Positions 25,658-43,476 are shown, counted from the stretch's first letter. The stretch: 64,000 bases of DNA from Candidatus Altimarinota bacterium (GCA_028697205.1 JAQVFO010000001.1:133086-197085); one strand, 5' to 3'. Notes: generated from the letters alone by a model not told the origin. Numbers and translations: made by a program.

Positions 25658-27448
25658 ATGTTTAAAAAAATTATTTTAATACCTTTTTTGTTTTCTTTAG
25701 TTTTTTTTACAAATTATTCATATGCTTTAGATACTAGCACTTGAGCTGTATTAAATGCATATAATAGTTTTATTTTAAAAATTGAAAGTAAACTAAATTT
25801 AAATTCTCAACTTGATTTACTTGAAAAATTGTCACTTAAACTTGAAGATATTTTAAAATCAAAATCATTAACAACAAAATCAATAATATTATTACAAGAA
25901 TTAGATAAATTAAATGATTCTAAACTTAAAGAAATAAAAACAAAACTTAATATTGAACCATATATTGATGTTGCTCAATTAGAAATTGAAGATAAAGAGA
26001 AACAGAAATTTAAAGATCTTAAAGATATAGCAGTTTTACCAAAATATGTATCAGATCTTTTGTGATATAATAGAAAGTATATTTATGTTATTTTTTCAGA
26101 AAATAGTCAATCATTTGAGTTTTTATCTAGTGATAATAATATAAAAAGAATTATTTTTTCAAAATATTATGAGCTAAATGATTGAAACTTTAATTATATT
26201 AAATCAAAACCATGAATTATATTTTTATATAATTGAAATTATGTTTTTGTTGATGATTACAAAGAAGAAGAAAAAATACCATATTCACAATCTAAAGATT
26301 ATTTTAAATGAGTTATTTTAACTCCAAATTTTAATATTTTTGAAAAAAATTGAAATTATTATTTCTATAAAATTACACAATTTAATTATATAAAAGATTC
26401 TTATTGATTTTATCTAAAAACTTTTGAAAAACTTTGATATAATACAAAAGATTTAATTGTTTATAAAAATAATTGAGTTTATACTTTTTCTTCTAGTTTT
26501 CAAGAACAAAAACTTATTAGCTCTGATATTATACAAAATATAGTTGATAAAAGTAAATTTCTAAGTTATGTTAGTAGTGATAAAAGAGATTTGAATTATG
26601 ATACTGATTCATATTTTAAAAGCCTAAAAAATATTTCTATAAATTTAACAGAATGATTAACTAAAGAAAATAAGATTAAGGCTATATATTGACGGATATT
26701 AAATAATATTACATATACTAATCCAATTGATTTAAATAAAAAAGAAATATTTTCTTGAATTGATACATTTAAAAATAAAGATTGAGTTTGTGAATGATAT
26801 GTAAAACTAATGGCTTATATGCTTATGTTTTCTTGAATTGAAGATATTGATGTAATTTTATGATATGTAATTAATGCATCAGATTTTCCTGAGTTATGAC
26901 ATGCTTGGGTAAAAATATGAACTTATTACTATGATCCTACATTTGATGATCCAATATGAAATGTTCAAGCAAAATCATTTGAAAATTATTCATATTATAA
27001 ACTTCCAGCTGATTTATTTTATACAAATAGATATGATATTTGAGATTTACCTGAAGAATTAAAAACTAAATCAAAAGATGAGTTAAATAATATTGTCTAT
27101 AAAAACTTATTTAATTTGATATGAAAATATGGTAATTCAAACTATAATTTGATGAAATATCCTTTATTCTTACATAATAATTGATTGAATTATGATGTAA
27201 AAGTAACACTAGCTAAGTTGGAAGACATTCTTACAACATATTATGTTAATTGACCTGATATGAGTTATATCTATAACTGAAAAAAATACTTAATTAAGAA
27301 AATGAAATTTTTTACAATAAATGATGAGAATATAAATAATGTTTTATATTCTATAAACTATGATTTGAATTGAAAATATTTTTTAAAATGGGATTTATGA
27401 AATTGAAATATTGAATATAGATTAGCATATGATTTTGAAACATTTTAG
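25658..27448 (+). CDS. Secreted transglutaminase-like protein, 596 aa
   Basis: Signal peptide (FKKIILIPFLFSLVFFTNYSYA), a Lys/Leu-rich helical region to ~130, then a long Tyr/Phe/Asn-rich beta region. The transglutaminase core carries the catalytic triad: Cys378 in KDGVCEGYVKLMAY, His415 in GHAWVKIG and Asp426 in YYYDPTFDD. The motif is typical of bacterial TGc domains, which include peptidases and cross-linkers acting outside the cell. It is the last gene after the S41 protease. Its stop overlaps the convergent gene by 4 bp. Confidence 0.88.
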
Positions 27449-27693
27449 TTTCTTTTTGGGCTTGCAAGTTTTTCTAAAAGTTTCCTTGTTTCTAAACTAA
27501 TGGAAACTTTTTTTAATACTATATCATGATATAATCATTCATAGATTGATGAAAAGTATTCATAAGCTTTCGTTTCTGATGATTCAGGATATTTTTCTTT
27601 TATTTCTTGTAATAATCTATAAATAAAATCTTGAGAGTCATATTGATTTTTAATCTGTTTAACTGAACTTTCTATAGAGAAAATATCACTCAT
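27445..27693 (-). CDS. Small hypothetical protein, 82 aa
   Basis: ATG 27693, TAA 27447-27445. It is highly charged and probably all-helical (SVKQIKNQYDSQDFIYRLL). It has no glycine-rich loops and only one TGA codon. No family recognised. It ends in the tail of the transglutaminase gene. Confidence 0.6.
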
Positions 27694-27759
27694 ATATTTA
27701 TATTATAAAATTAAGTAATTATATATTATAAATATATGAAAAGACAAAAACTGAAAAAA

Positions 27760-29547
27760 TTAAGACAATTTATTAATAATGTTAATTTTCAGATTACTAT
27801 CATTAATTTTTAGATAAAAATTTGTTATACTTCACTTACAAATCAAAGGAAATCTTATCTTTTTCTTTTCCTCAATTAGTTTTACTAATGGAATTATAAT
27901 TTTTCAAAGCATTTCATTTTTGTTTGAGGTATAACTTGAAATAGGAAATTCAGTTGAGCAAATATCTTTTCACTTGTTTTCTAAAAGAATTTCAAGAATA
28001 TCAATAGTTGTATTTTGACTATGTAATTCCTTTGAAGTTAATTTTTCTCAGTCTAGAAATATTTTTCTGTTAATTAAATCAAGAGTCAATCATTCTGGTA
28101 AATTATCTTCAATTTTTGTTATATCATTGATTATACTACTTCATTTATTTGTTTTAAGAATATAACTGCTTTTTGATATAAATTCGGAATAAACATTGTT
28201 TTCTATATCTTGTTCGACTTTTAGTCATTTGCTTTCTATTCAGTCAATCCAATTTGCATAAATCAATTTTACTCAAGAAACTTCATCTTTTGCTTTATCT
28301 ATAGAAACTAGTAAGTTTTTTCTAAATCATTCTAATGGTAAAGTAAATATAACAGTTCATCACATAACAGATGTATCACTTGGGGCTATTCATATAGATT
28401 TACTTTTTCAACTAAAAATTTGAAGTAAATTATCTATAAATTTTGCAAAAGTTGATGATCTTTTTCTTGTTATATAGTTTCAAAATCTTACTTTATTTAT
28501 CACATCTATAAAGTTTTTCATTGTACTTTCTGTATATGAAGATGAATATAATCTAATCATTATGTTTAACATCTCTAAACTAAGAGCTCACATAAGTTTT
28601 CAATATGTTTCTTTAAATTCATCTTCTACTCATTCTTTTACAAAAGTTTTATAAAATATTGGCTTTCTAATTGGAAGAGTGTTTTCTAAATCTTTTTCAA
28701 AATAGCTAACTAATTTATCTTTTATTTCTTCTGTCCAATTATATGAATTTTCATTTGTATCAATTATATGATCTGTTAAGACTGGAGAACCTGAGTAAAT
28801 AACTCAGTAATCAATTGGTATAAAAGGAACTGAAGGTAAAGTTTTATCTAATGTATTTAATCTATATCAATAGTACTTAATTTTATCTATATCTAGATTC
28901 TGTAAATCATCTTCTATGTCTTCAGTAAATGAAACAATAGGATAATATGAATCAAAAAAAGAAGCTATTTGATTTTCTATTTTATTTACTCTTTTTCATA
29001 AATCTTTGTTTAATTTAAGTGTTTTTCTAAATAATTTATCAACATTTGTATTTGCATTTAAAAAGTCATTTATATCTATATTTTCAGAGTTTACATAAGT
29101 ATTTCATGAATAATACTTTTCAAGTCAAATAATTATAAGAAGTGTAACAACTGATGAAAATCATAATCAAATTCATCTAGATAATTCAGTTAAAATATTT
29201 ATTTCTATTCATCATTTTTTTTGTATTTCTTTAAAATATTCTTTGTTGAAATAATCACTATATTGCTGAAAAAATGGTGCATATTCAACTATTTTACTAT
29301 TTATAAATTTATCATCATTTATATCTAGATAAGATATTTTATTAAAGTTTATTTTTTTATCACTTATCTTATTTACTCAAAGATATATTCTTAGAGGTAA
29401 TTTTTGTTTAATTCTTATTCACTTATAGTTTGAAAATACATCTCAAGCCCAATTTAAAATTAGAGGTAAAGAAATAACAGAATTGTTTTTTCTGTAGAAA
29501 TTCTCATAATTTTCTTTAAACTGAAATTTTAGTTTTGAGGATTTCAT
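27760..29547 (-). CDS. GHMP-kinase-like protein with conserved C-terminal domain, 595 aa
   Basis: The N terminus has ISLPLILNWAGDVFSNYKG, similar to the GHMP start (aPgrv...GeH.dy..G), and then the phosphate loop ELSRGIGLGFSSVVTLL. DTSVMGGTVIFTLP near residue 410 fits the GHMP C-terminal Gly motif. The last ~110 residues are the domain shared with the plus-strand paralog at 30998: DGEKLTSKELHSQNTTIDIL, SYTSNKNEMLGKIIIPL, CKGSITNFYLKI. These ends are about two-thirds identical in my alignment, whereas the kinase parts barely align, so the C-terminal domain is under stronger constraint. It lies 24 nt after a PLP enzyme of the threonine-synthase type, as homoserine kinase often does. Substrate unknown. 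Confidence 0.7.
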
Positions 29548-29571
29548 ATTTCTTTATTTAAATAATAAATA

Positions 29572-30672
29572 TTAATTTTCAAGTCACTTTCAAGTTGAAA
29601 TTATTATTATTTTTGAATTTAAATTTATATTTGGTCTATTATTTGAAATAAAAGTAGCAAAAGTAACTGCAGCAGAGTTTTCACATCTAACTCAAAATTT
29701 TTCAATTATATTTTTTACTTTTGAAATATCTTCATTTCATACTTCTGTATATATGTTTCACTGTTCTGTAAATATTTTGTATAGAATTGGTAAAACAGCA
29801 GTAAAAGGTGTAGTTAACTTTTCAGCTAAACTATTTTCTTCATAATTTTTAATCTGATATTCATCAACTCAGTATTTTAGTGCATATGCTAATGGATGTT
29901 CTTTTTCAGGTGCCACTGCAATTATTTTTGTTTTCATTCAAAGTTCTTTTATAGCTAACCAAATTCAAATAATTATATCTCAACTACCACAAGGGACAAC
30001 AACATAATCGGGATTTTCATCTTTCATTTCATAGAATAATTCCTTATAAGCATTAATACTTACAGGTTCAAAACTATTTGTAACTGCCCAAGTATGCTTC
30101 CAATTTTTTAGTCTTTCATATTTGTCATATTCTTCAACTATTTGTTTGAAATCTCTAGGTCTTAGTATTCAATTAAATCTAGATCAATCAATTGATATAA
30201 CTTCTCACCATTCTTTAAGTGAACTTTTTCTTTCTTTTGATACCCAAGGAAAAATTAGGCTTGTATAATCAATTCAGGCTCTACTACAATATCTTCATAA
30301 ACTATATCAAGCATTTCAAGCAGTTAGACAAACTATTTTATCTACATTATTTTCTATTGCTACATTTATTATATATTCACTTCTTCTATCCTTGTGAGTT
30401 CAGTATGGATTGTATGATTCATCTTTTATCAACATATTTCATAATCATAAAATTGAAGCAACCTCTTTGTTTTCAATTAATGGAGTTTTTCAAGCTCAAT
30501 AAGATATATGTACTTTTTTAAATGGTACTAAACTTTCAAATCATTCGACTTTATATCATCATTCTAAAACTAAATTGCTATATTTTGAATCATTAGCTTC
30601 AGGATTACTAAAAACATTTAGTCAAAAAGGAAATTCTTTTCATGTTTTTACACATTTTAATATCATTGTCAT
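29572..30672 (-). CDS. Threonine-synthase-like PLP-dependent enzyme (fold type II), 366 aa
   Basis: Contains the lysine that binds pyridoxal phosphate in DESYNPYGTHKDRRSEY, then TAGNAGYSLGRYCSRAG (the substrate-binding Asn loop), and CGSGDIIIGIWLAIKEL for phosphate. These fit threonine synthase, threonine dehydratase or cysteine synthase; THKDR resembles threonine synthase (family form ..SFKDR). The N terminus begins TMILKCVKTGKEFPFG, with one Cys, and no zinc set is seen. It is the first gene of the operon with the GHMP-like protein, which would make homoserine kinase plus threonine synthase a natural guess, but the kinase is too diverged to assert it. Confidence 0.8.
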
Positions 30673-30693
30673 ATATTCTTAATTAAAGAAATA

Positions 30694-30742
30694 AAAAAAA
30701 GAGTTAAAAACATTAGGTATTGATATTTTTCACTCTTTTTTT
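30694..30742 (-). terminator. Terminator-like hairpin in the leader of the PLP-enzyme operon
   Basis: Arms AAAAAAAAGAGTTAAAAA and ATTTTTCACTCTTTTTTT form a long stem with flanking U tract on the minus transcript, ending only ~20 nt before the ATG at 30672. No gene ends here, so it must act either on the minus-strand leader (attenuation) or on the opposite strand. A short ORF overlaps it. Confidence 0.6.
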
Positions 30743-30820
30743 AATAGTATTGTATAAAAAGTTTGTACAAAAGGCGGATATTTCAAAAATTAAATTGGCT
30801 TGTAATAGCGATATTCGCAT
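30713..30820 (-). CDS. Possible 35-residue leader peptide overlapping the hairpin
   Basis: ATG 30820 to TAA 30715-30713, stopping in the loop of the hairpin. Its codons include CGA, TCG, GCC and TCC, unlike ordinary genes of the window, so the segment could equally be structured RNA. The peptide has five Ile and three Thr, not enough to prove a thr-type leader. There is no visible Shine-Dalgarno site. A small RNA is a fair alternative. The region 30743-30997 otherwise holds only A/T-rich upstream sequence and no other gene. Confidence 0.3.
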   Translation of the reverse strand: MRISLLQANLIFEISAFCTNFLYNTIKKRVKNINT

Positions 30821-30997
30821 ATTTTTTAATTTTAAAAATTAAATTATTATATTATATATTTATTTTTGATTAAAAGTCAAATTGAAAATCATATAATAAA
30901 ATTACATTAGTCAAGAGTAAAATTTTATATATTTATTTTTTGCAATTAATCATTTAATTACTATATTATTTATAGTTTTATAATTCAAATTATTAAT

Positions 30998-32734
30998 ATG
31001 ACAAGAATTGAAATGAACTCGTTATCATTACAAAAACACTTTTCAGAAGTATATAGAGATTTCTTTGCAAGAAATGACTTAGTTTTGAGTTGATGTTTCA
31101 ATTTTCCTTGGGGATATGAGTCATGAAATAACTCAGAAACATATATTAGAATGAAATCTGCATTGCCATTGAGATATTATGTTTGAATTAAGTTAAAAAA
31201 TGATTTAAAAGTAAAATTTAATAATATAAGTTTTTTTGATATATTATGAAAAAAATTTGAAGTAACTAAATATATAAACGTAAATAAGGAAGAAAAATTA
31301 ATTTCAGAACTATTACAAAATGAATTAAATAAATTATGATTAAAAACATGAATTGAAATTGAATTATTATCTGAAACATCTAGAGGTCATTCATTTTGAT
31401 TTTCTTGAACATCTGCAGCAATAATTTCATACTGAATATATAAAATTTTTGATTTTTTAAATTGAAAATCTTTTATTAAGAATGCAGATTTCTTAGAAAC
31501 TAATTTTAAGAAAATTTTTTCACTTGCTTGAAAAATTGATTATATATCAAGATACTGAGATACTTATGGACACAATTCGATTTTTACATTAAAACCAAGT
31601 AATTGAATATCATTTCTTTTAACAAATAAAATTGATTTTGATGAAGAATTTATTGATAAAATTGATAAAATACCTTTTGAATATAAAAGTATAGAAAATA
31701 ATGATATAGATTTACCATTTGATTACTTTATTATATTTTCATGATTGCCAACAGATACAAAGCAGGTAGAATATTATAAGAAATTAGAACTAAGTGAAAA
31801 TGATTTATCAGAATTTGTTAAAAATGATTTAAAAAATATTGATGATTATACTATAAATAAATTTAAAGATAATTATGTTATTAATTCTACAAAATTTGAT
31901 ATTATAAATATTGAAAATTTAAAAACTTTGAATTATTTTTTTAAAATTTATAAAAAACCTTATAATGAAAATTTAATTAATAGTTTTATAGAAAGTATTA
32001 ATAATCGTAGATGAGTTATTTGATTACTTGAAAAGCAAAGTTGATTTGCAGATGATTTTAATCATTTTTTTAGAAATAATAGATCAAATTATAATGAAAT
32101 AATGTGAATTTCTCCTGCTTATTCATGAAAATTATGATGAGGGTATATAGTTGTAACAAAATCTTGATTATCTAGAAATACAATTTTAAAAACAATTAAT
32201 GATTTAAAGTTAGCTTACCCAAATGTTGAAATTGAATATTGTTCATATATAGATTGACCTTCAAATGATTGAGTATTAGTAGAACAATTTATATCAAATG
32301 AAATTTATTCAAAATATATTGATAAAAATAAGATTCAATATAAAGATAATAAATGAAATAATTATTTATGAGATTACTCAGATTTAATAGAAAAACAAAA
32401 TAACTGACTGCTTTTTGATATGATTAATAATAAAATTTATTTAAATTGAGAGAAACTTACATCAAAAGATATTCATTCACAAAATACAACAATTGAGATT
32501 GTTACAAAACTTTTAGAAAATATTTGAGAAGAAATTTCAAATAAAGAATTTTCTGTATCAAGTTATTCAACTAATAAAAATGAAATGCTTTGAAAAATAA
32601 TTTTACCACTTATTAAATTAATAGAAGAAAAAACTTGAGAAAAATTATCTTTAGTTTGTAAATGAAGTATAACAGATTTTTATGTAAAAATGTGAGAAAT
32701 AAATTTAACTATATGAATAATTAAAAAACTATAG
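30998..32734 (+). CDS. GHMP-kinase-like protein with conserved C-terminal domain, 578 aa (paralog of 27760-29547)
   Basis: Start ATG 30998, divergent from the PLP-enzyme operon. The GHMP phosphate loop is RGHSFGFSGTSAAIISY (129-145). A C-terminal GHMP glycine motif YSGKLGGGYIVV is present. The last ~105 residues, from about 474, are nearly the same as in the minus-strand paralog: LNGEKLTSKDIHSQNTTIEI, NEMLGKIILPLIKLIEE, CKGSITDFYVKM. The domain pattern (short strand, helix, helix, Gly-rich hairpin) resembles an OmpR-type winged helix, so a regulatory role is conceivable. It is followed by a terminator directly before the NACHT gene. Confidence 0.7.
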
Positions 32735-32754
32735 ACAATTTTTGATAAAAAAGG

Positions 32755-32796
32755 AAAAAAGAGGTATAATTAATATGTAATTAACCTCTTTTTTAA
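32755..32796 (+). terminator. Terminator between the GHMP-like gene and the NACHT gene
   Basis: Arms AAAAAAGAGGT and ACCTCTTTTTT with further A/T pairs (AATTA / TAATT) and a small loop. It ends 2 nt before the ATG at 32797, so it can also occlude the NACHT start and set its expression low. Confidence 0.8.
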
Positions 32797-35742
32797 ATGA
32801 ATAGAGAAAAAGATAAATTGTTAGAGAATGAAAATCAAATAAATAAAAAAAAGAGATCTCAAAGAAATGAGGTATCTATTACTGTGCAAGAAACAAAAAC
32901 TGATATAAAAAAGAAACTAGATAAAACATTTGTAGAAAAAATAACTGACCAAGAAATAGATGAAGTATTATGAGATAAAAGAGTAAAACAAAGAATTACA
33001 TTACTTAGACATTATCCATACAACGATGAAACAGAAGTAAATAAAAAAATTATTGAAGAATATAATAGATTGTTATTAAGAAAATTAAGGCAAGACAAGC
33101 TTTCAGAAAATGAAATTGAAAAATTAATATTATTAGAAAAACAAGTTGATGCTTTAGTATATAATAGTTTTTCAGATATACCAGAAAAATACTTAAACTA
33201 TAAAAGAAGTGTAGAAAACATATTTAAAAGTTGATGAAGAATATTATTAGTTTACCCAAAAGATTGAAAAACAAGAGTTAAAAAATCTTGAGAAGATTTA
33301 AAAAAACAATTTTGATTTGATAATACAAGTGATATATGACTTAAATGATCTGATAAAAAACAAACACTATGAAAGATATATGTAGATATGGCTACAAACT
33401 TTGCAGAAGAACTAAATAAATTATTAAAAGAAAATAAGTGACAATATGAGAATATAGTAATAGTATGAAATAGATCATATTCATTTAGTTTTAATTTGTG
33501 TACTACATGAGACAGAGAAATATCAATAAGACAAAGTGAAGAAAACTTTGAAAGTGATTGATATAATTTTACTGACTACGTAAGTGAAAAGGGTACTTTA
33601 CCAAAAGATTATCAGTACATCATAGTTACACATGAAAACTATAATAATTTAAAAAAACTATTCCCAGAAATCGAACATAATTCTATAATTGATTTTCAAA
33701 ATAAATTAAATGTTTATTTTTTAAAGAATCCTGAACTAAATCATAGGTATGAGTATTTATATAGTGATATAGAAGAACTTAGAGTTTATTGTTTACTAAA
33801 CTTAATTAAATTTAAAAAAGTCGAAACACTAAATAAGCTATTTAAAGATAAAGAATTTAGAATTTTAGTAGAAAAAGTTAATTTTGAAAAGTTGCTTAAT
33901 AATCAAGAAAAAAGTATAATACATTATTACCTACAAGTGTATCCAAAGGTACTAGAAGTTAAGGTAAGATCACTTGATTTAAGAATAAAAAATTGAGAGG
34001 ATATAGAACCACATTTTAATTTTGATGATAAGAATTATGAAGATAATAATTTACAATTAATTAAATCATGAAAGCCAATTAAATACATAGAGTGAAAAGC
34101 TTGAGCATGAAAATCATTTTTACTATCACATTTAGTTGAGTTATCACAAAAAGAAAACTTTAAAAATAATTGAGATAATAAACCATATTATCCAATTTAT
34201 TTTAGTTTATCAAGTAAAAATCTAAATGATTTAAAAAGTTTTTTAGATAGGGAATTAGATAATATAGAAAATAAGAGTGATTATGAAATAGTGTTTTTAT
34301 TTGATTCAATTGACGAAAGTACAATAAATTGAGAAGAAAGAAAAGATCTAGATAAAATACTATTAAACTTATCTGAAAAATGAAAAGTAATTATTACCTC
34401 TAGAAATGGGTATTTATATAATTACAATTTAAGAAATGAGGATGAATTAGAACAAAAAAGTAATTTAAATTTAAAACAAGAAATTATAGAAATTAAAGAT
34501 TTTACTGAAGACGATATAAAATGATATTTGGAAAAATATTTTCCATATGATGATAAGAAAAGAAATGATGTTTTATCTATATTAACCAAACTTAACTGAG
34601 CCTGAAATAACCCACTTATATTAAGCATGGTTTGTGAGATAGTTAAGGATTGAAAATTAAACCTTAAGACATGAGAAAAAATAGATCTAGTAAATATTAA
34701 TATAGTAGATATTTATAATGAAATAGTAAGAATTAGATTATTTGATAATAGTGAAAAACCAGAAAGAAGATGACACAAAAATGATTTATTAGATGAAATG
34801 TCACTACTTAATACAAAGAAAGAATTTTTAGCTAAACTTGCATATGAATTTTTATATAATAATGTAATTTTAACTGAGGAATATTTGCATAAGTTTATTT
34901 TAACTAATAAATATGGTGTTTATATAAAAAAAGATTTAGAATCTTTAAATTTAATTTTTAGAAGAAGTGAAGATTGAAAGTATTTCTTTGTTCACCATTC
35001 TTTTTTTGAATATTTTGTTGCATATTATATATTTAATTTAATTAATAAAATAAGTGAGGAAGAATGATGAGCACTTCCTTATCTTTTAGATATATATTCA
35101 TTAAAAGGTTATAGTTATGATATACTTGAAAAATTACTTTACTTTATTAAGTGAGAGAGTAATTTTAAAGAAAAAGTAATAAAAGATATAATTGATAAAT
35201 TAGTTAATAATAATAGTATAGATTCATCGAAAGAAATATATATATTATCTATTTTGAATAAAAATTTAGCAAATACCATTTTTAATAAATATGTAATTAC
35301 CTATAAAACAAGCTATAAAGATTTAGTTTTTATTGAGTGAATTATTCGTTCTAATGTTAAATGATTAACAAAGTACATAGTTTATTTATTATCAAAAATT
35401 AACTTTGATTTGAAAAAGAATAGTTGAGGTATTTGACAAATATTAATATACTTTAATGATATAGTAAAGTTAATGACAAGAAGTGGATTATGAAAAAATT
35501 TATATAAATACCTGTATAATGAAATTTATATAAAATGAGAAAAATACTTACTTACTCCATATACATTTAATATTTTATATGATAATTCAGAAAATAAAGA
35601 TGTTCTTATAAAAATCACAAAAAATTATATAAATAAAAGACTTAATTTTTTTAGATGGTATTGACATTATTATTGATGAGATATAAATTCATTTTTTTGA
35701 GAAATTTTATACTGTGAATATGATCCTAAAAAGAAATATTAA
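32797..35742 (+). CDS. NACHT/STAND NTPase, 981 aa
   Basis: Large signalling-type ATPase. Walker A is EGKAGAGKSFLL (Lys439) and Walker B EIVFLFDSIDES (Asp503). The arginine-bearing sensor segment KVIITSRNGYLYNYN follows. Further on, a helical winged-helix region ends with FFVHHSFFEYFVAYYIF (730-746), a NACHT hallmark. The C-terminal ~240 residues are Leu/Ile-rich helical repeats. The N-terminal ~425 residues, with GNRSYSFSFNL and several helices, match no effector I know. STAND proteins of this layout act as ligand-gated switches, in bacteria often in antiphage defence. It is preceded by a terminator, followed by two small genes. Function here is inference. Confidence 0.88.
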
Positions 35743-35777
35743 CTTTTTCTTAACTTTTTCAGTATTTTTCTTTTTTA
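35741..35777 (+). repeat. 3' repeat element, copy 1
   Basis: T/C-rich element starting in or just after the stop codon: TTTTTCTTAACTTTTTC, then (A/C)AGTATTTTTCTTTTTT. Similar copies follow genes at 36136, 39760 and 43483. It lies just before a terminator. Confidence 0.6.
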
Positions 35778-35808
35778 TACCTTGTACTATGTGCAAGGTA
35801 TTTTTTTA
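35777..35808 (+). terminator. Intrinsic terminator after the NACHT gene
   Basis: Arms ATACCTTG / CAAGGTAT with a nine-base loop, then seven T. Confidence 0.9.
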
Positions 35809-35834
35809 TTTGCTAAATCTACCAAAATATACAG

Positions 35835-36137
35835 ATGAAAACTATTGCTGAACTAAATAATTATAGAATAAAAATTCTTCTTTTGCTTAAAAATAATGAT
35901 GAATTAATCGCTAAAAATATTATTTTTTGAATAGCAAATGATGAATTTATGCAAAATTGAGATTATAAATGAATGTATAATTTTTTTAGTCCTATTTATG
36001 ATGAACTTTTTTATGAACTTGTAACCGAGAAACTAAAACTTTCTAGAGAAACAAGGAATCTTCTTGAAACTTTGTCTTTGCCTTATTTTAAGATGGATAA
36101 ATCTAAAAAAGACAAACTTTTAAAAAGGCTAAAATAA
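35835..36137 (+). CDS. Small hypothetical protein, 100 aa
   Basis: ATG 35835, TAA 36135-36137. Helical, Leu/Lys-rich (KTIAELNNYRIKILLLLK) with a C-terminal basic end KKDKLLKRLK. No family recognised. It stands between the NACHT gene and the 65-aa gene, and its 3' end carries another copy of the 3' repeat element. Confidence 0.65.
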
Positions 36138-36171
36138 TTTTTCTTAATTTTTTCAATATTTTTCTTTTTTG
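36136..36171 (+). repeat. 3' repeat element, copy 2
   Basis: Stop-proximal sequence TTTTTCTTAATTTTTTC, then AATATTTTTCTTTTTT. Same layout as the copy at 35741, differing by a few bases. Confidence 0.6.
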
Positions 36172-36218
36172 GAAAATGTATAAGTTGGGTACTTTAATTT
36201 TTAAAATAACTTAATTAT

Positions 36219-36416
36219 ATGGAAATAATATTACCAAATAGTAGTTCAGAAATACTTTTACTTAGCAAAGAAGAAGTAAACAATACACTAAAAGTTATAA
36301 AATGAGAATTTAGTGGCTTAGTATCTCAATCTTTAAAATCTTTATGATCAAATGATAATAGATTTAAATTATGAATTATTTTACCTTCATCAGAGATTAT
36401 AACAGATATTTCATAA
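36219..36416 (+). CDS. Small hypothetical protein, 65 aa
   Basis: ATG 36219 to TAA 36414-36416. The protein begins EIILPNSSSEILLLSKEEV and is Ser/Leu-rich. It has no membrane segment. No family recognised. It is the gene just before the epimerase-acetyltransferase fusion, 40 nt away. Confidence 0.55.
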
Positions 36417-36456
36417 CTTTTTTTGAAACTTTTTAATTATTATTTAATTTTATAAT

Positions 36457-37986
36457 ATGAATAACAAACTGCCAGAGTTTATTTGAGACGACTTAGTTTC
36501 AAAGTGAAAAATTGGGAATTCAGATGTTTTATGACAAGTTGATAATTCTAAAGTTTCTATTAATAGATTAATAGAAATTGATAATATTAGCAACTTACTT
36601 AGTTTTGATATATATAGTCCTTGATGAAACATAACATGTTTAATTGAGTCTGATTTAACAAATCCATTTATAAAAAAACTAGTTAATCAACAAGTAATAA
36701 GATCTTGTGACTCTGTAGAGCAAGTTTGATTTATAAATTTAGATTCAGTTCCTCCAAAACTTGAAATGGCATGATGAGAATTTTGTTGAAATGCAACAAG
36801 AAGTTTAATTTATAAATATTTTTGATGAAAAAAGTGAGAGTGAGAATTTCAAGTTTCATGAGTTGAAAGAAACTTAAAGTGATGAATAGATGAAAATTTA
36901 GAAGTTTGGACAGAAATGCCAATTTTTTCTGACATTAATAAGATTACTCAAATTTGAAAAAATGAATATTTAGTTGAAATGGAATGAATTGTTCATTTAA
37001 TAAAATATCTAGAATCAAAAATATATTTAGATGGTTGAATTGAAAAAGAATCTGAGGTTAAGCAAAATTCACTAAATTTAATTAATAGAAATTGATTAGA
37101 TAAATATCCTGCAGCTTGAGTAATTTATGTTTCAAAAATATGAAATAAATTGCAAATTCAACCTTTTGTATTCGTAAGAGATTTAGATCAAATTTTTGCA
37201 GAAACTGCTTGTTGAAGCTGAAGTACAGCTCTATGACTTGTTGAAGCTTTAAAATTAAGATCTAGTATAACTGATTTAGAAGTTTTACAACCATCTTGAG
37301 ATATCATAAAAGTAACTGCTGATTATAATAATAACGAAAATATATTTAATTGAGCATCTATTAAATGAAAGGTAAAAAAAATACTATCTTGAAAATTACC
37401 ATTAAAACCTACTAAATATAAATGAGAATATTTTTATACAAATGAAATTAATAATTTAGAGTCATTATGAGAAACATTAAATAATTGATTGATTGAATTA
37501 TATAAAAAATGCTTTGAATGAGAACCATATAATGAACTTTTTTCAGATGAAGATGTTCGTGAAATTTTTTTAAGATATTTTAAATTTTGACAAATAAATA
37601 TATCAAAACAAAAAAATAAAATTATATGATTTTCAAGCATTGTACCATTGTTAATTGAGATTGATGTTTTATCTTCATTAATGTGATTCATAAAGGAAAA
37701 ATGACTTGATATTAATATGTGTAAATATGTTGCAGACTTGTGAGTTGATAAATCATTTAGAAAAAATTGAATATGAATAAATATGATATTAGATTTTATT
37801 AATATAGCAAAACCATGAGAAGTATTATTTATGAGGACATCAGAAAAAAATATTGCATCATGGAATTTATTTAGAAGTTTATGATTTATTGAATTAACAT
37901 GAATAGATCAACAAACTGAATCATTAAGACAAGATTGAGAGCTAAAAAGTGATAGAAGAATTTTTTCATATTTTATAAAAAAATAA
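36457..37986 (+). CDS. DapF-like epimerase/racemase fused to a GNAT acetyltransferase, 509 aa
   Basis: Two domains. Residues ~60-320 are a diaminopimelate-epimerase fold: catalytic Cys110 in GGEFCGNATRS and Cys252 in ETACGSGSTA, the pair that takes and gives the alpha proton in PLP-independent amino-acid racemases. Residues ~345-509 are a GNAT acetyltransferase, with ADLGVDKSFRKNGIGINMI as the acetyl-CoA loop and SEKNIASWNLFRSLGF as the usual following helix. Histidine racemases also belong to the DapF fold, which is notable beside hisD and hisS, but the substrate is not proven. Probably one protein makes and acetylates a D-amino acid or modified amino acid. It lies just upstream of a TrpR-like gene. 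Confidence 0.85.
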
Positions 37987-37990
37987 TTAT

Positions 37991-38047
37991 TTGACTTTTT
38001 ACTTTATTTAAATAAAGTGTTTATATATTACTTTACTTAAATAAAGT
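37991..38047 (+). promoter_or_regulatory. Promoter with two palindromic operators for the TrpR-like gene
   Basis: The perfect palindrome ACTTTATTTAAATAAAGT is at 38001-38018 and the near-perfect ACTTTACTTAAATAAAGT at 38030-38047, with centres 29 bp apart. Between them lies TATATT (38024-38029), a -10, and TTGACT (37991-37996) precedes the first site. The second site ends 6 nt before the ATG. This is the layout of autorepression by a dimeric TrpR/YerC-type regulator. Confidence 0.75.
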
Positions 38048-38053
38048 GTAATT

Positions 38054-38374
38054 ATGGAAGATAATGAACTAAAAAGAATTTTTAAAGATATTGTAACATA
38101 TTTATCAATTACAAATAATAATGAAAAAATATTTAATTTTCTAAGAGATTTACTCTCTGAAAGTGAAATAATAGAATTTTCTAAAAGATTTGAGGTAGCA
38201 AGAATGCTTGATGAAAAAAAATCATATAAAGAAATTGAATTAAACACAGGTATGAGTTCTACAACTATTGCAAGGATTTCAAAGTTTTTATCTTGAGAAA
38301 ACAGAGGGTATAAAGAAGCTATTATAACCTTAAAGTCAGCTCAATCTAATCATCATGTAGGCCATCAATCTTAG
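38054..38374 (+). CDS. TrpR/YerC-family transcription regulator, 106 aa
   Basis: Small all-helical DNA-binding protein. The helix-turn-helix is SYKEIELNTGMSSTTIARIS at residues ~56-75, with the preceding LLSESEIIEFSKRFEVARML typical of TrpR/YerC (TrpR-like) proteins. TrpR-type proteins bind an amino acid or similar effector as a dimer. The two palindromes overlapping its own promoter suggest autorepression. It lies between the epimerase fusion and hisD; a hairpin separates it from hisD, so it may regulate one or both. The C-terminal tail KSAQSNHHVGHQS contains three His. Confidence 0.88.
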
Positions 38375-38399
38375 AATGGTGTTTTTTACAATATTTTTT

Positions 38400-38431
38400 A
38401 CCACTTCTAGGATTATCTAAAAGTGGTTTTT
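38400..38431 (+). terminator. Hairpin between the TrpR-like gene and hisD
   Basis: Arms ACCACTT / AAGTGGT, loop of 14 nt, followed by TTTTTATTTATTTA. It could be a terminator or an attenuator for hisD, whose ATG is 21 nt downstream. Confidence 0.6.
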
Positions 38432-38451
38432 ATTTATTTAATATTAGAATT

Positions 38452-39768
38452 ATGTTATATATAAAATGATTAACATCAAATAAAGATGAATTTAATGAAT
38501 TTAATAGTTCATTTACTTTAAATTCTTTACTTGCACGTCCAGCACAATCAAAAGAATATGTTGAAAATGTTGTAAGTTTAATAGAAAATGATGTTTTATT
38601 ATATTGAGATGATGCAATAAAGGAATTAACTAAAAAATTTGATTTAGTTGATCTTGATAATTTTTTAGTTTCAAAAAATGAATTTGAGGAAGCTATAAAA
38701 GAAGTTGATGATAAACTTAAAAAAGCAATTGGAATTTCAAAAAATAATATTGAAAAATTCCACAAAAGACAAAAGGTGAAAAATTTAGAACCTGAAGAAA
38801 CTTCACCTTGAGTATTTTGTTGGAGAGAGTTTAGAGCCATTGAAAGTGTTTGACTTTATATTCCTTGATGAACTGCAAGTTTATTTTCAAGCGTTCTTAT
38901 GTTATGAATTCCTGCAAATTTGGCTTGATGTAAAGATATTCAAATTTGTACTCCGGTTAATAAAGAGTGAAAGATTTCCCCCGAAATACTTTATACTGCA
39001 AATATTCTTTGAATAAATAAAGTTTATAAAATTGGTTGAGCTCAAGCAATTTTTGCAATGGCATATTGAACAAAACAGGTATCAAAAGTTGATAAAATTT
39101 TTTGACCTTGAAATGCATTTGTAACTGAAGCTAAATTAAAAGTTTCAAAATTTTGTTCAATTGATATGCCAGCATGACCTAGTGAAGTTTTAATTATTGC
39201 AGATGAATTTTCAAATCCTAAGTTTATTGCTGCTGACCTGATTTCTCAAGCTGAGCACTGAAAAGACTCACAGTGTGTACTTTTATCAACATCAACTCAA
39301 AAAATAAAAGAAGTTCTTTTTGAGTGTAAAAATCAGCTTATAGATTTTCCTAGACAAGAAATAGCTATAAAAGCTTTAGAAAATAGTTTTGCTATATTTG
39401 TTGATACATTAGAGCAAGCAATAATTATTTCAAATCAATATGCTCCTGAACATTTAATTCTTCAAGTAAAAGATTGGAACATATATTTAAATAATATTAT
39501 TAATGCTTGAAGTGTATTTTGTTGAAGTTATTCACCTGAATCAGTTTGAGATTATTCAAGTTGAACAAATCATACACTTCCTACAAATTGATTTGCAAAA
39601 TCATATTCTTGAATTTGACTTGAAAGTTTTTGAAAACGGATAACGTTTCAAGAGGTTACAAAGAATTGATTACAAACTCTAAAAAATACTGTAGAAGATA
39701 TGTCTTTAAAAGAATGATTATTTGGGCATAAAAATGCTGTTTCTATAAGATTTAAAAATTTTTCTTAA
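38452..39768 (+). CDS. hisD: Histidinol dehydrogenase, 438 aa
   Basis: Last step of histidine synthesis: histidinol to histidine, NAD+ dependent, zinc enzyme. Diagnostic parts are VGLYIPGGTASLFSSVLMLG, VDKIFGPGNAFVTEAK, MPAGPSEVLIIAD, SQAEHGKDSQCVLLS (zinc ligands Gln and His), YAPEHLIL, SVGDYSSGTNHTLPT (Asp ligand) and a C-terminal LFGHKNAVSIR (His ligand). The length fits the family. No other his gene is seen here, so either the pathway is elsewhere or the enzyme is used for another reaction. It is followed by hisS-like genes. Confidence 0.95.
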
Positions 39769-39796
39769 CTTTTTCAATATTTTTCTTTTTTAAAAA
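39760..39796 (+). repeat. 3' repeat element, copy 3
   Basis: TTTTTCTTAACTTTTTC then AATATTTTTCTTTTTT, overlapping the hisD stop, as at 35741 and 36136. Confidence 0.6.
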
Positions 39797-39835: not shown

Positions 39836-41182
39836 ATGGCAAAATTACTTCCTTGATGATTTGGAGAACTCACTCCAGATAAACAAAAAATTCAAAATGT
39901 TATGAAAGATATAATTGTAAAAAATTATGAGTCATTTTGATATGTAAATATTGAAACTCCAGCAGTTGAACTAAATGAGGTTTTAACTTCAAAGTGATGA
40001 GAAGAAGTGTGAAAACAAATTTTTTGATTGTATTGATTGAAACAATGACCATCTGATTTAAAACCTTATTCACTACATTTTGATCTTACTGTTCCTTTTG
40101 CAAGATATGTTGTTGATAATGAATCAATTCTTAAATTTCCGTTTAAAAGATATCAAATACAAAAAGTTTGGAGATGAGAAAGACAACAAAGATGAAGGTT
40201 TAAAGAATTTATACAAGCTGATATTGATTTAGTATGAACAAAGTTACCTTTAAATTATGATAGCGAGGTTATACTAACACTTTATAGAACTTTGGAAGAA
40301 ATATTTGAATTTTTAAAAGTTTGAAAGTGAGTTGAAATTCACTTAAATAATAAAAAATTTATTGAATGAATTTGTAATATGTATGAAATATTTTGAGATG
40401 ATAAAATAAAGATTTTCTGACTTCTAGATTGATTTTATAAAGCTACACCTGAAGAATTTTTAAGAAAGCTTGAAGATCTTGTATGAGATAAATTTCTTGA
40501 AATAAATAAAATTATAAATACTTCTATTGATGAGTTAGATGAATCTAACAAATTTATATGAGAGTGAGTAAAAGAATTAAAACAAGTTTATAATTCATTA
40601 AGAGACAGATGAGTAAATGTTATGTTTGATCCATATATTACTAGAGGGTTAGATTATTATACATGAACTGTTTTTGAAACTTTTATTAGTAATTATGATA
40701 ATTTTTGAAGCATATGTAGTTGATGAAGATATGATAATCTTGTAGAGTCAATTAGAAAAGTATCAAATTGATGAAAAACTTCGAGACAGCAAGCTAATTA
40801 TGAGTGAGTATGATGATCTATTTGACTTTCTAGATTATTTTGATGACTTGATGAAACATGAATGATAAATAAGCAACTTCCTCTTACTCAAGCAATTATA
40901 TTTAATACTATATGATCAAACTTATGATATAGAGAAAGAGTTTGAGAAATATTAAGATCAAATTGAATTTCAACTGATATTTATTATTCCGATGATAAAC
41001 TTCAGAAACAATTTACATATGCTGAAAGTAAAAATACAATTTTTTGAATATTTGCTTGAACTGATGAACAGTCAAAAAATGAAGTAATTGTAAGAAATCT
41101 TTATTCAAGAGAACAAGAAAATGTATTAGTTTCTAACTTAGTTAATTATATAAATATAAAGCTAAAAGAGACTTTAAAATAA
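39836..41182 (+). CDS. hisS: Histidyl-tRNA synthetase, copy 1, 448 aa
   Basis: Class II synthetase. Start [18 protein letters not shown], motif 1 [20 protein letters not shown], motif 2 [19 protein letters not shown], the histidine-binding RGLDYYTGTVFE, SGGRYDNL, and motif 3 VGGSIGLSRLF. The C-terminal anticodon domain begins GSNLGYRERVGEILRSNG and ends in LVNYINIKL. Length is normal. Copy 2 lies 1 kb downstream. Both have Gln instead of the usual Pro in ER(P/Q)Q. Confidence 0.95.
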
Positions 41183-42162: not shown

Positions 42163-43476
42163 ATGTACAAAGTTTGATGATTTGCAGAACTTACTCCTGA
42201 ATATAAGATTCTAGAAGAAAAAATGTTAAATATAATAAAGAAAAACTACAGACAATATGGATATACACCAATTGAAACTCCAGCAGTTGAGAAAACTGAA
42301 GTTTTGACAGCAAAATGATGATGAGAAGTAAAAAATCAGATATTTTGAGTTTATGGTTTAGCTCAGGGGAGTGAAGATATGAAAGATTATAGTCTACACT
42401 TTGATTTAACTGTTCCATTTTCACGTTATGTTCTTGATTATAGATGAGAGTTAGCTTTTCCTTTTAAGAGATCACAAATCCAAAAAGTATGGAGATGAGA
42501 AAGACAACAAAGATGAAGAAGTAAAGAATTTTATCAAGCTGATATAGATGTAATTTGGGAAGAAAATACATGAAATGATTATTTGTTTTATGATGCTGAA
42601 GTTGTATCAGTTGCTTACAATACGTATTTAGAAATATTTAAAGAATTTTGACTTGAAACAAAAATCAAGGTAAATCTAAATAATAGAAAAATTATTTCAG
42701 GATTTATTGATAGTTTGTGATTAGCAAATAAATTAACAGAAATCTCAATAATTATAGATAAAATAGATAAAATTTCAGCCCAAAAATTTTTAGAAGAATT
42801 AAATGAAATAGTAAACAATGATGAAATAACTCAAAAAATACTTAAATTTTGTAGATATAATGCAACTTATGATAACTTAAATAATATCTGAATAGAATTA
42901 CAAATAGATAATGAGGAATTCAAAAAGTGAATATATGAGTTAAAAGAAGTATTATCATTTATGTACAAACTTTGACTTGAAAAAGATAAAGTTATAGTGA
43001 ATTTATCTATTATCAGATGACTAGCATACTACACTTGAACAGTTTTCGAAACATTTGTAGAATGAGATAGAAACTTGGGTTCAATTGGTTCTGGTTGAAG
43101 ATATGAGAAATTAACAAGTTATATAGATCCAAAAACTGCTTTTTCATGAGTTTGATTTTCTATTTGAGTAACTCGTATGGAAGAATATTTATTTGAAAAA
43201 ATAGATAAATCAACTCTTCAAAAAACTACTTCTGATTTCCTGATTATAAATTTTGAAGAAACACAAAATGAGAGTTTGAAACTTTATAACAAACTTATAA
43301 ATGAATGAAAAAATGTAGAGTTTTATCCAGAGAGTGATAAACTTGCAAAACAATTTAAATATGCAGATAAGAAGTGAATTAGATATTGTTTAATTATGTG
43401 AGAACAAGAATTAAATAGTTGAGTTTATGTAATTAAAGATCTTAAATCAGGAGAGAGTAGAGAGATAAGACTTTAA
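42163..43476 (+). CDS. hisS: Histidyl-tRNA synthetase, copy 2, 437 aa
   Basis: Complete second paralog. Start MYKVGGFAELTPEYKIL, YTPIETPAVEKTEVLTAKGG, motif 2 VWRGERQQRGRSKEFYQAD, RGLAYYTGTVFE (Asp replaced by Ala compared with copy 1), SGGRYEKL and motif 3-type VGFSIGVTRME. The anticodon domain is present to the end (LKSGESREIRL). The D-to-A change lies in the usual histidine-binding loop, so the substrate may differ, or the protein may have become regulatory, as in HisZ. Confidence 0.93.

What the first reader, a model, noticed from the sequence alone, without database searches (positions are those of the whole stretch)
27760..32734. Two GHMP-kinase paralogs with a highly conserved extra C-terminal domain flank a threonine-synthase-like enzyme
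The C-terminal ~105 residues are about two-thirds identical by eye, while the kinase domains barely align. So the extra domain is what evolution holds fixed. Its pattern suggests a winged helix. Divergent orientation around the shared intergenic region suggests joint control. A kinase carrying a DNA- or ligand-binding end is unusual.
Basis: partly seen in the sequence, partly recalled or inferred. Interest (0 to 1): 0.65.

Follow-up and report, generated by a model that had tools for sequence, protein, structure and literature searches.

The report
Kinase-fold gene regulators sharing one operator
Two related bacterial proteins look like metabolite-sensing kinases rebuilt into gene switches: each ends in the same winged-helix domain of the type that grips DNA, and a short repeated DNA signal near genes turns up mainly in genomes that carry this family, which would explain why that end of the protein is so conserved.

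Summary
Genes A (27760-29547, -) and B (30998-32734, +), read with code 25, are end-to-end paralogs (BLASTP E=7e-83). Identity is 63% over the last 110 residues and 25% over the GHMP part. Models give a GHMP-kinase fold plus a separate C-terminal winged helix of OmpR/PhoB topology. The kinase motifs are eroded, and absent in some relatives. The family was found only in Patescibacteria: 33 copies in 25 of 77 genomes of the order and a few elsewhere. The C-terminal domain always sits behind the GHMP part. The A/PALP/B trio is two independent modules side by side: PALP occurs only beside A-type members (4/4 genomes), a NACHT-type gene only beside B-type members (11/11). 'Joint control' from the shared intergenic region is not supported. 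New: a 28-bp element with three TTTC-like repeats at 11/10 bp, usually 11 nt before a TATA[AG] -10 box, tracks the family: 12/12 carrier and 1/36 non-carrier genomes of the window's taxonomic family. Four copies lie within 12 kb in this window. Most likely these are one-component regulators with different sensors reading one shared operator. DNA binding is inferred, not shown.

The parts
27760..29547 (-). Gene A, 595 aa: GHMP-like fold plus C-terminal winged helix (PALP-linked clade)
27763..28095 (-). C-terminal winged-helix domain of A (last ~111 residues)
   Evidence: 63% identical to B; fold by homology to the B model
29572..30672 (-). PALP: PLP-dependent, threonine-synthase-like enzyme, upstream of A with a 24-nt gap
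   Evidence: PF00291 E=3.5e-42; found only beside A-type genes in the order, 4/4
30998..32734 (+). Gene B, 578 aa: GHMP-like fold plus C-terminal winged helix (NACHT-linked group)
32405..32731 (+). C-terminal winged-helix domain of B (residues ~470-578; model strands begin near residue 446)
   Evidence: AF2 pLDDT 92, Foldseek OmpR/PhoB-type hits, profile match
32742..32770 (+). Promoter-like TTGATA-17-TATAAT before the NACHT gene, its -10 inside an inverted repeat
   Evidence: exact inverted-repeat pattern once in the genome
32797..35742 (+). NACHT (STAND) NTPase, 981 aa, partner of B
   Evidence: PF05729 E=1.6e-9; its N-terminal domain occurs only beside this family in the order, 11/11
27445..27693 (-). 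Small c2-family protein, 82 aa, with a box upstream
35835..36137 (+). Small c2-family protein, 100 aa, with a box upstream
27740..27767 (-). Tandem-repeat box, candidate operator, between A and the small gene; overlaps the end of A
35746..35773 (+). Tandem-repeat box after the NACHT gene, before the second small gene
36140..36167 (+). Tandem-repeat box with TATAA at +11, before a 65-aa ORF and the racemase-GNAT gene
39761..39788 (+). Tandem-repeat box with TATAA at +11, before a HisRS gene

Best explanation
A and B belong to a Patescibacterial family of one-component transcription regulators. The N-terminal ~430 residues are a GHMP-kinase fold used to sense a small ligand, with kinase activity reduced or lost. 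The C-terminal ~110-140 residues are an OmpR/PhoB-type winged helix. Paralogs have diverged in the sensor and in the partner gene beside them (PALP, NACHT, or an HD-GYP-like/histidine-phosphatase protein) but keep one DNA-reading head, because most of them read one shared operator: a 28-bp box, TKTCTTnnnTTTTTCArTwTTTkTCTTT, with three TTTC-like repeats at 11/10 bp and in most copies a TATA[AG] -10 element 11 nt downstream. A protein bound there would cover the -35 region, as class II activators of the OmpR/PhoB family do. In this window A and B would converge on the same four boxes under different signals. Shown: paralogy, conservation asymmetry, predicted fold, exclusive gene partnership, existence of the box, its promoter geometry and its co-occurrence with the family. 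Inferred: ligand sensing, loss of catalysis, DNA binding, and that this family rather than another regulator reads the box.
For: Conservation split 63% against 25%, general in the family. GHMP fold of B. C-terminal model with OmpR/PhoB strand-helix order and BaeR/AdeR DNA-binding domains as top Foldseek hits; profile-profile score 27.8 against at most 21.6 in 200 column shuffles. Glycine-rich loop lost in relatives with an intact C-terminal domain. Partner genes exclusive to the family and following its tree. Box: present at <=1 mismatch in 12/12 carriers and 1/36 non-carriers of the taxonomic family, 18/25 against 4/52 in the order; still significant for sites far from the family genes (6/12 against 1/36, p=5e-4); TATA[AG] at exactly +11 in 28 of 54 sites, not used in the search; box upstream of family genes or operons in L038, L042, L220.
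Against: No binding data. Foldseek E-values for the C-terminal domain exceed 0.1 and hhalign's probability is only 30%. The motif was first found beside these genes. Outside the window's taxonomic family the association alone is not significant (6/13 against 3/16, p=0.23). Four non-carrier genomes have a box. Seven carriers have none at <=1 mismatch. The genome has three ordinary OmpR-type response regulators that could read the box. The association is not corrected for phylogeny.
Confidence: 0.5

Rival explanations
1. The family are active small-molecule kinases of accessory metabolic or defence modules. The conserved C-terminal winged helix is a protein-interaction or oligomerisation domain held fixed by a common partner, and the box belongs to one of the ordinary two-component response regulators.
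For: A recognisable glycine-rich loop persists in A and B. Three OmpR-type response regulators are present. The most conserved residues include the putative recognition helix in all paralogs, which a protein interface would also explain. Nudix and PALP enzymes beside the genes suggest metabolism.
Against: The loop is lost in L037, L040, L055, L056 with the C-terminal domain kept. The box tracks the family across genomes.
Confidence: 0.25
2. The family are local regulators, each controlling only its neighbouring partner gene through promoter-proximal inverted repeats (such as the one over the NACHT -10). The tandem box is a promoter element of an unrelated regulator that is co-inherited.
For: Exclusive adjacency to partner genes. 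Inverted repeats over or near a -10 in several B-NACHT gaps; the exact W pattern occurs once in the genome.
Against: Similar hairpins occur in other gaps of the window. The inverted repeats differ between loci. A shared DNA-reading head across paralogs is not predicted.
Confidence: 0.15
3. A and PALP are a homoserine kinase and threonine synthase, a threonine pathway pair, and B is a spare copy.
For: PALP is closest to threonine synthase models. The only PDB sequence hit of B is a homoserine kinase, at E=0.38.
Against: NCBIfam hits are far below cut-off (92 of 421 bits at best). No profile match to E. coli ThrB. Fold hits are led by galactokinases. Most family members have no PALP.
Confidence: 0.05

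Closest known systems
OmpR/PhoB-family DNA-binding domain (Pfam Trans_reg_C, PF00486)
   Same: strand-helix order, profile register over ~93 columns, tandem direct repeats at 10-11 bp as candidate site
   Different: no Pfam match; fused behind a GHMP fold and not to a receiver domain; recognition helix nearly invariant across paralogs
GHMP kinase superfamily (galactokinase, mevalonate kinase, heptokinase WcbL)
   Same: overall fold of residues ~1-430; remnants of the glycine-rich motif
   Different: catalytic motifs eroded or missing; extra C-terminal domain
ROK-family regulators and yeast Gal3/Gal1 co-inducers
   Same: a sugar-kinase-like fold reused in gene regulation (ROK: PMC4856308 abstract; Gal3/Gal1: PMC3048525 abstract)
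   Different: from my own knowledge, ROK proteins use another kinase fold with an N-terminal HTH, and Gal3 has no DNA-binding domain
Bacterial NACHT/STAND proteins (for example bNACHT25, PMC12169576)
   Same: NACHT domain in B's partner
   Different: no PADLOC match; different N-terminal domain; anti-phage role untested

Membership tests
GHMP kinase superfamily | GHMP fold | tested here: met
   Foldseek, galactokinase E=9e-13, probability 1.00
GHMP kinase superfamily | Pfam GHMP_kinases_N above the curated cut-off | tested here: not met
   A 16.7 bits against 22.3; B none
GHMP kinase superfamily | intact ATP-binding glycine-rich motif and catalytic residues | tested here: inconclusive
   glycine motif altered in A and B and lost in four relatives; catalytic Asp not seen by eye, no formal alignment covers it
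GHMP kinase superfamily | phosphotransfer activity | not testable with these tools
   needs an enzyme assay
OmpR/PhoB-type winged helix | four-strand sheet, three helices, C-terminal hairpin | tested here: met
   AF2 model secondary structure, pLDDT 92
OmpR/PhoB-type winged helix | structural or profile similarity to known members | tested here: inconclusive
   top Foldseek hits are members but E>0.1; profile score above 200 shuffles, hhalign probability 30%
OmpR/PhoB-type winged helix | binds DNA | not testable with these tools
   only a candidate operator was found
Two-component response regulator | receiver domain | tested here: not met
   N-terminal part is a GHMP fold
Histidine phosphatase (N-domain of the NACHT protein) | similarity to His_Phos_1 | tested here: not met
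   only an RH motif; no Pfam, PDB or profile support
Threonine synthase (PALP) | NCBIfam equivalog cut-off | tested here: not met
   best 92 bits against 421; PALP fold itself met, PF00291 E=3.5e-42

The most novel reading that the evidence does not exclude
A Patescibacteria-specific class of one-component activators in which a retired GHMP kinase is the sensor and an OmpR/PhoB-type head is the output. Several paralogs with different sensors feed one shared box regulon that includes STAND/NACHT loci, a small partner protein, aminoacyl-tRNA synthetases, amino-acid enzymes and large surface proteins.
Probability: 0.4. Interest if true: 0.75.

Novelty: new variant of a known kind. Interest (0 to 1): 0.6.

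Why it matters
Gene regulation in these tiny, mostly uncultured host-dependent bacteria is little charted. If right, this gives a new sensor class (GHMP fold), a new regulator architecture, and a concrete operator with predicted targets that can be tested in vitro without culturing the organism. It also offers a general reason why a DNA-reading domain can be more conserved than its sensor: many inputs, one address.

Tried and rejected
Threonine pathway (homoserine kinase plus threonine synthase): motif, profile and partner evidence fail; the other threonine genes of the genome were not searched. Histidine-phosphatase identity of the NACHT N-domain: motif only, no statistical support. Standalone C-terminal domains: apparent short hits proved to be full-length genes with diverged GHMP parts. 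Known RNA element in the region: no Rfam match. Phage link: no match in phage records or viral contigs; plasmids not searched. Generic promoter scan: total count not above shuffles (99 against 92 plus or minus 9), so not used as evidence. The inverted repeat over the NACHT -10 as the family's operator: similar hairpins occur elsewhere, kept only as a rival. Literature: no held paper joins 'GHMP kinase' with 'winged helix'.

Full report
Observation. Under code 25 (TGA=Gly) A (27760-29547, -, 595 aa) and B (30998-32734, +, 578 aa) are intact and flank a PLP enzyme (29572-30672, -). The one named relative found in the genome collection is a Gracilibacteria MAG. BLASTP aligns A and B end to end (33%, E=7e-83), so the first halves do align; but identity is 63% over the last 110 residues and 25% over the GHMP part, and 27 relatives show the same split (50% against 25%).

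Folds. AF2 of B on a 27-row alignment gives pLDDT 88, and Foldseek puts it with the GHMP kinases (galactokinase E 9e-13, then mevalonate kinase and WcbL), although Pfam is sub-threshold. The last 139 residues modelled alone reach pLDDT 92 with the strand/helix order of an OmpR/PhoB winged helix. The best structural hits are BaeR and the AdeR DNA-binding domain, at E>0.1. A profile-profile test against ten OmpR-type domains (seven from E. coli, three from this genome) scores 27.8; 200 column shuffles reach at most 21.6, and windows of the GHMP part 8-14. hhalign's own probability is only 30%, so this is good but not overwhelming support.

Kinase state. The glycine-rich loop is recognisable in A (SRGIGLGFSS) and B (RGHSFGFSG) and is missing in L037, L056, L040 and L055, whose C-terminal domains are intact. 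The loop that carries the catalytic Asp in galactokinase reads Ser or Asn by eye; no formal alignment covers it. I infer a sensor with reduced or lost catalysis.

Distribution and partners. The family occurs in 25 of 77 genomes of the order (33 copies) and in 8 of the 379 other genomes sampled across the phylum, where motif 1 and the glycine loop look more canonical. In every copy read in full the C-terminal domain sits behind a GHMP part. Three gene families occur in the order only beside it: the N-domain of the NACHT protein (11/11 genomes), PALP (4/4) and an HD-GYP-like/His-phosphatase protein (7/7, within about 4 kb). Partner type follows the tree; the PALP type is one clade, and A and B are old paralogs. 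G001 has A-PALP followed directly by the TrpR-HisD-HisRS genes, without B, NACHT and the racemase gene (L049). The trio in the window is therefore two modules side by side, not one jointly controlled unit. Nudix genes lead the family gene in L035, L038, L039 and L042, and lie between it and the NACHT gene in L036.

Box. A k-mer search of regulatory gaps led to a 28-bp element, TKTCTTnnnTTTTTCArTwTTTkTCTTT, with three TTTC-like repeats 11 and 10 bp apart (an autocorrelation of the weight matrix did not single out one period, so the repeat reading rests on inspection). Genome-wide scans find sites with at most 1 mismatch in 12/12 carrier and 1/36 non-carrier genomes of the window's taxonomic family, and in 18/25 against 4/52 in the order. 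Counting only sites on other contigs or more than 20 kb away, it is 6/12 against 1/36 (p=5e-4) and 10/25 against 4/52 (p=1e-3). The near/far split was made by hand from the coordinates. TATA[AG] starts exactly 11 nt after the box in 28 of 54 distinct sites (36 of 54 within 9-13 nt, 7% in shuffles), which was not a search criterion. So the box looks like a real promoter element. In G000 its four close copies all lie at 27740-39788 of this window. It precedes family genes or their operons in L038, L042 and L220, and in weaker form in L039 and L053, and every c2 small gene examined (9/9 by inspection, some with weaker boxes). Other targets by inspection of the translations include HisRS-, TyrRS- and LysRS-like genes, a PLP decarboxylase, a ComM-like gene, ThiF-like operons and large surface proteins; apart from HisRS these names were not checked with a family library.

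Reading. A constant head, variable sensors and one operator fit one-component regulators that bring several signals to one regulon. Limits: binding is inferred; the motif was found beside these genes; outside the window's taxonomic family the association alone is not significant (p=0.23); four non-carriers have a box; carriers with only the HisPhos type have none, which fits their altered wing (CSG for CKG; genomes with a CKG member 15/15 with a box against 3/10 without) but is confounded by phylogeny, and the wing comparison was made after seeing the counts. Three response regulators of the genome are alternative readers.

Novelty. Kinase folds reused as regulators are known (ROK, Gal3). I found no held paper on a GHMP fold fused to a winged helix, and no phage or viral-contig relatives. 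I rate it a new variant of a known kind.

Noticed in passing
36457-37986: A histidine-racemase-like (CntK, sub-cut-off, E=2.7e-27) domain fused to a GNAT acetyltransferase domain, in a cluster with a Trp-repressor-family gene, HisD and two HisRS-like genes.
   Followed up: partly
39836-41182 and 42163-43476: Two HisRS-like genes close together; the first has the tandem box and a TATAA upstream.
   Followed up: no
32797-35742, residues ~60-310: N-terminal domain of the NACHT protein has invariant R, RH, R and R residues across eight loci, no known family, and in L053 and L118 seems to be fused to an S4-like domain instead of NACHT.
   Followed up: partly
30691-30745 (- strand leader of PALP): Conserved A/T-rich hairpin followed by a U-run just before the PALP start in W and L049; possible attenuator.
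   Followed up: partly
L217 3701-13790 and L219 6398-12200: Box-preceded gene arrays in two genomes, each with a large membrane-like protein and a ThiF-like protein.
   Followed up: no
L182-L184, L186: Box upstream of very large, related, probably surface-exposed proteins in G033 and G008.
   Followed up: no
L044, L045, L047, L048, L050: A conserved 146-218 aa protein (c5); in four loci its gene ends on the stop codon of the family gene (convergent), in L050 it lies between the family gene and c3.
   Followed up: no
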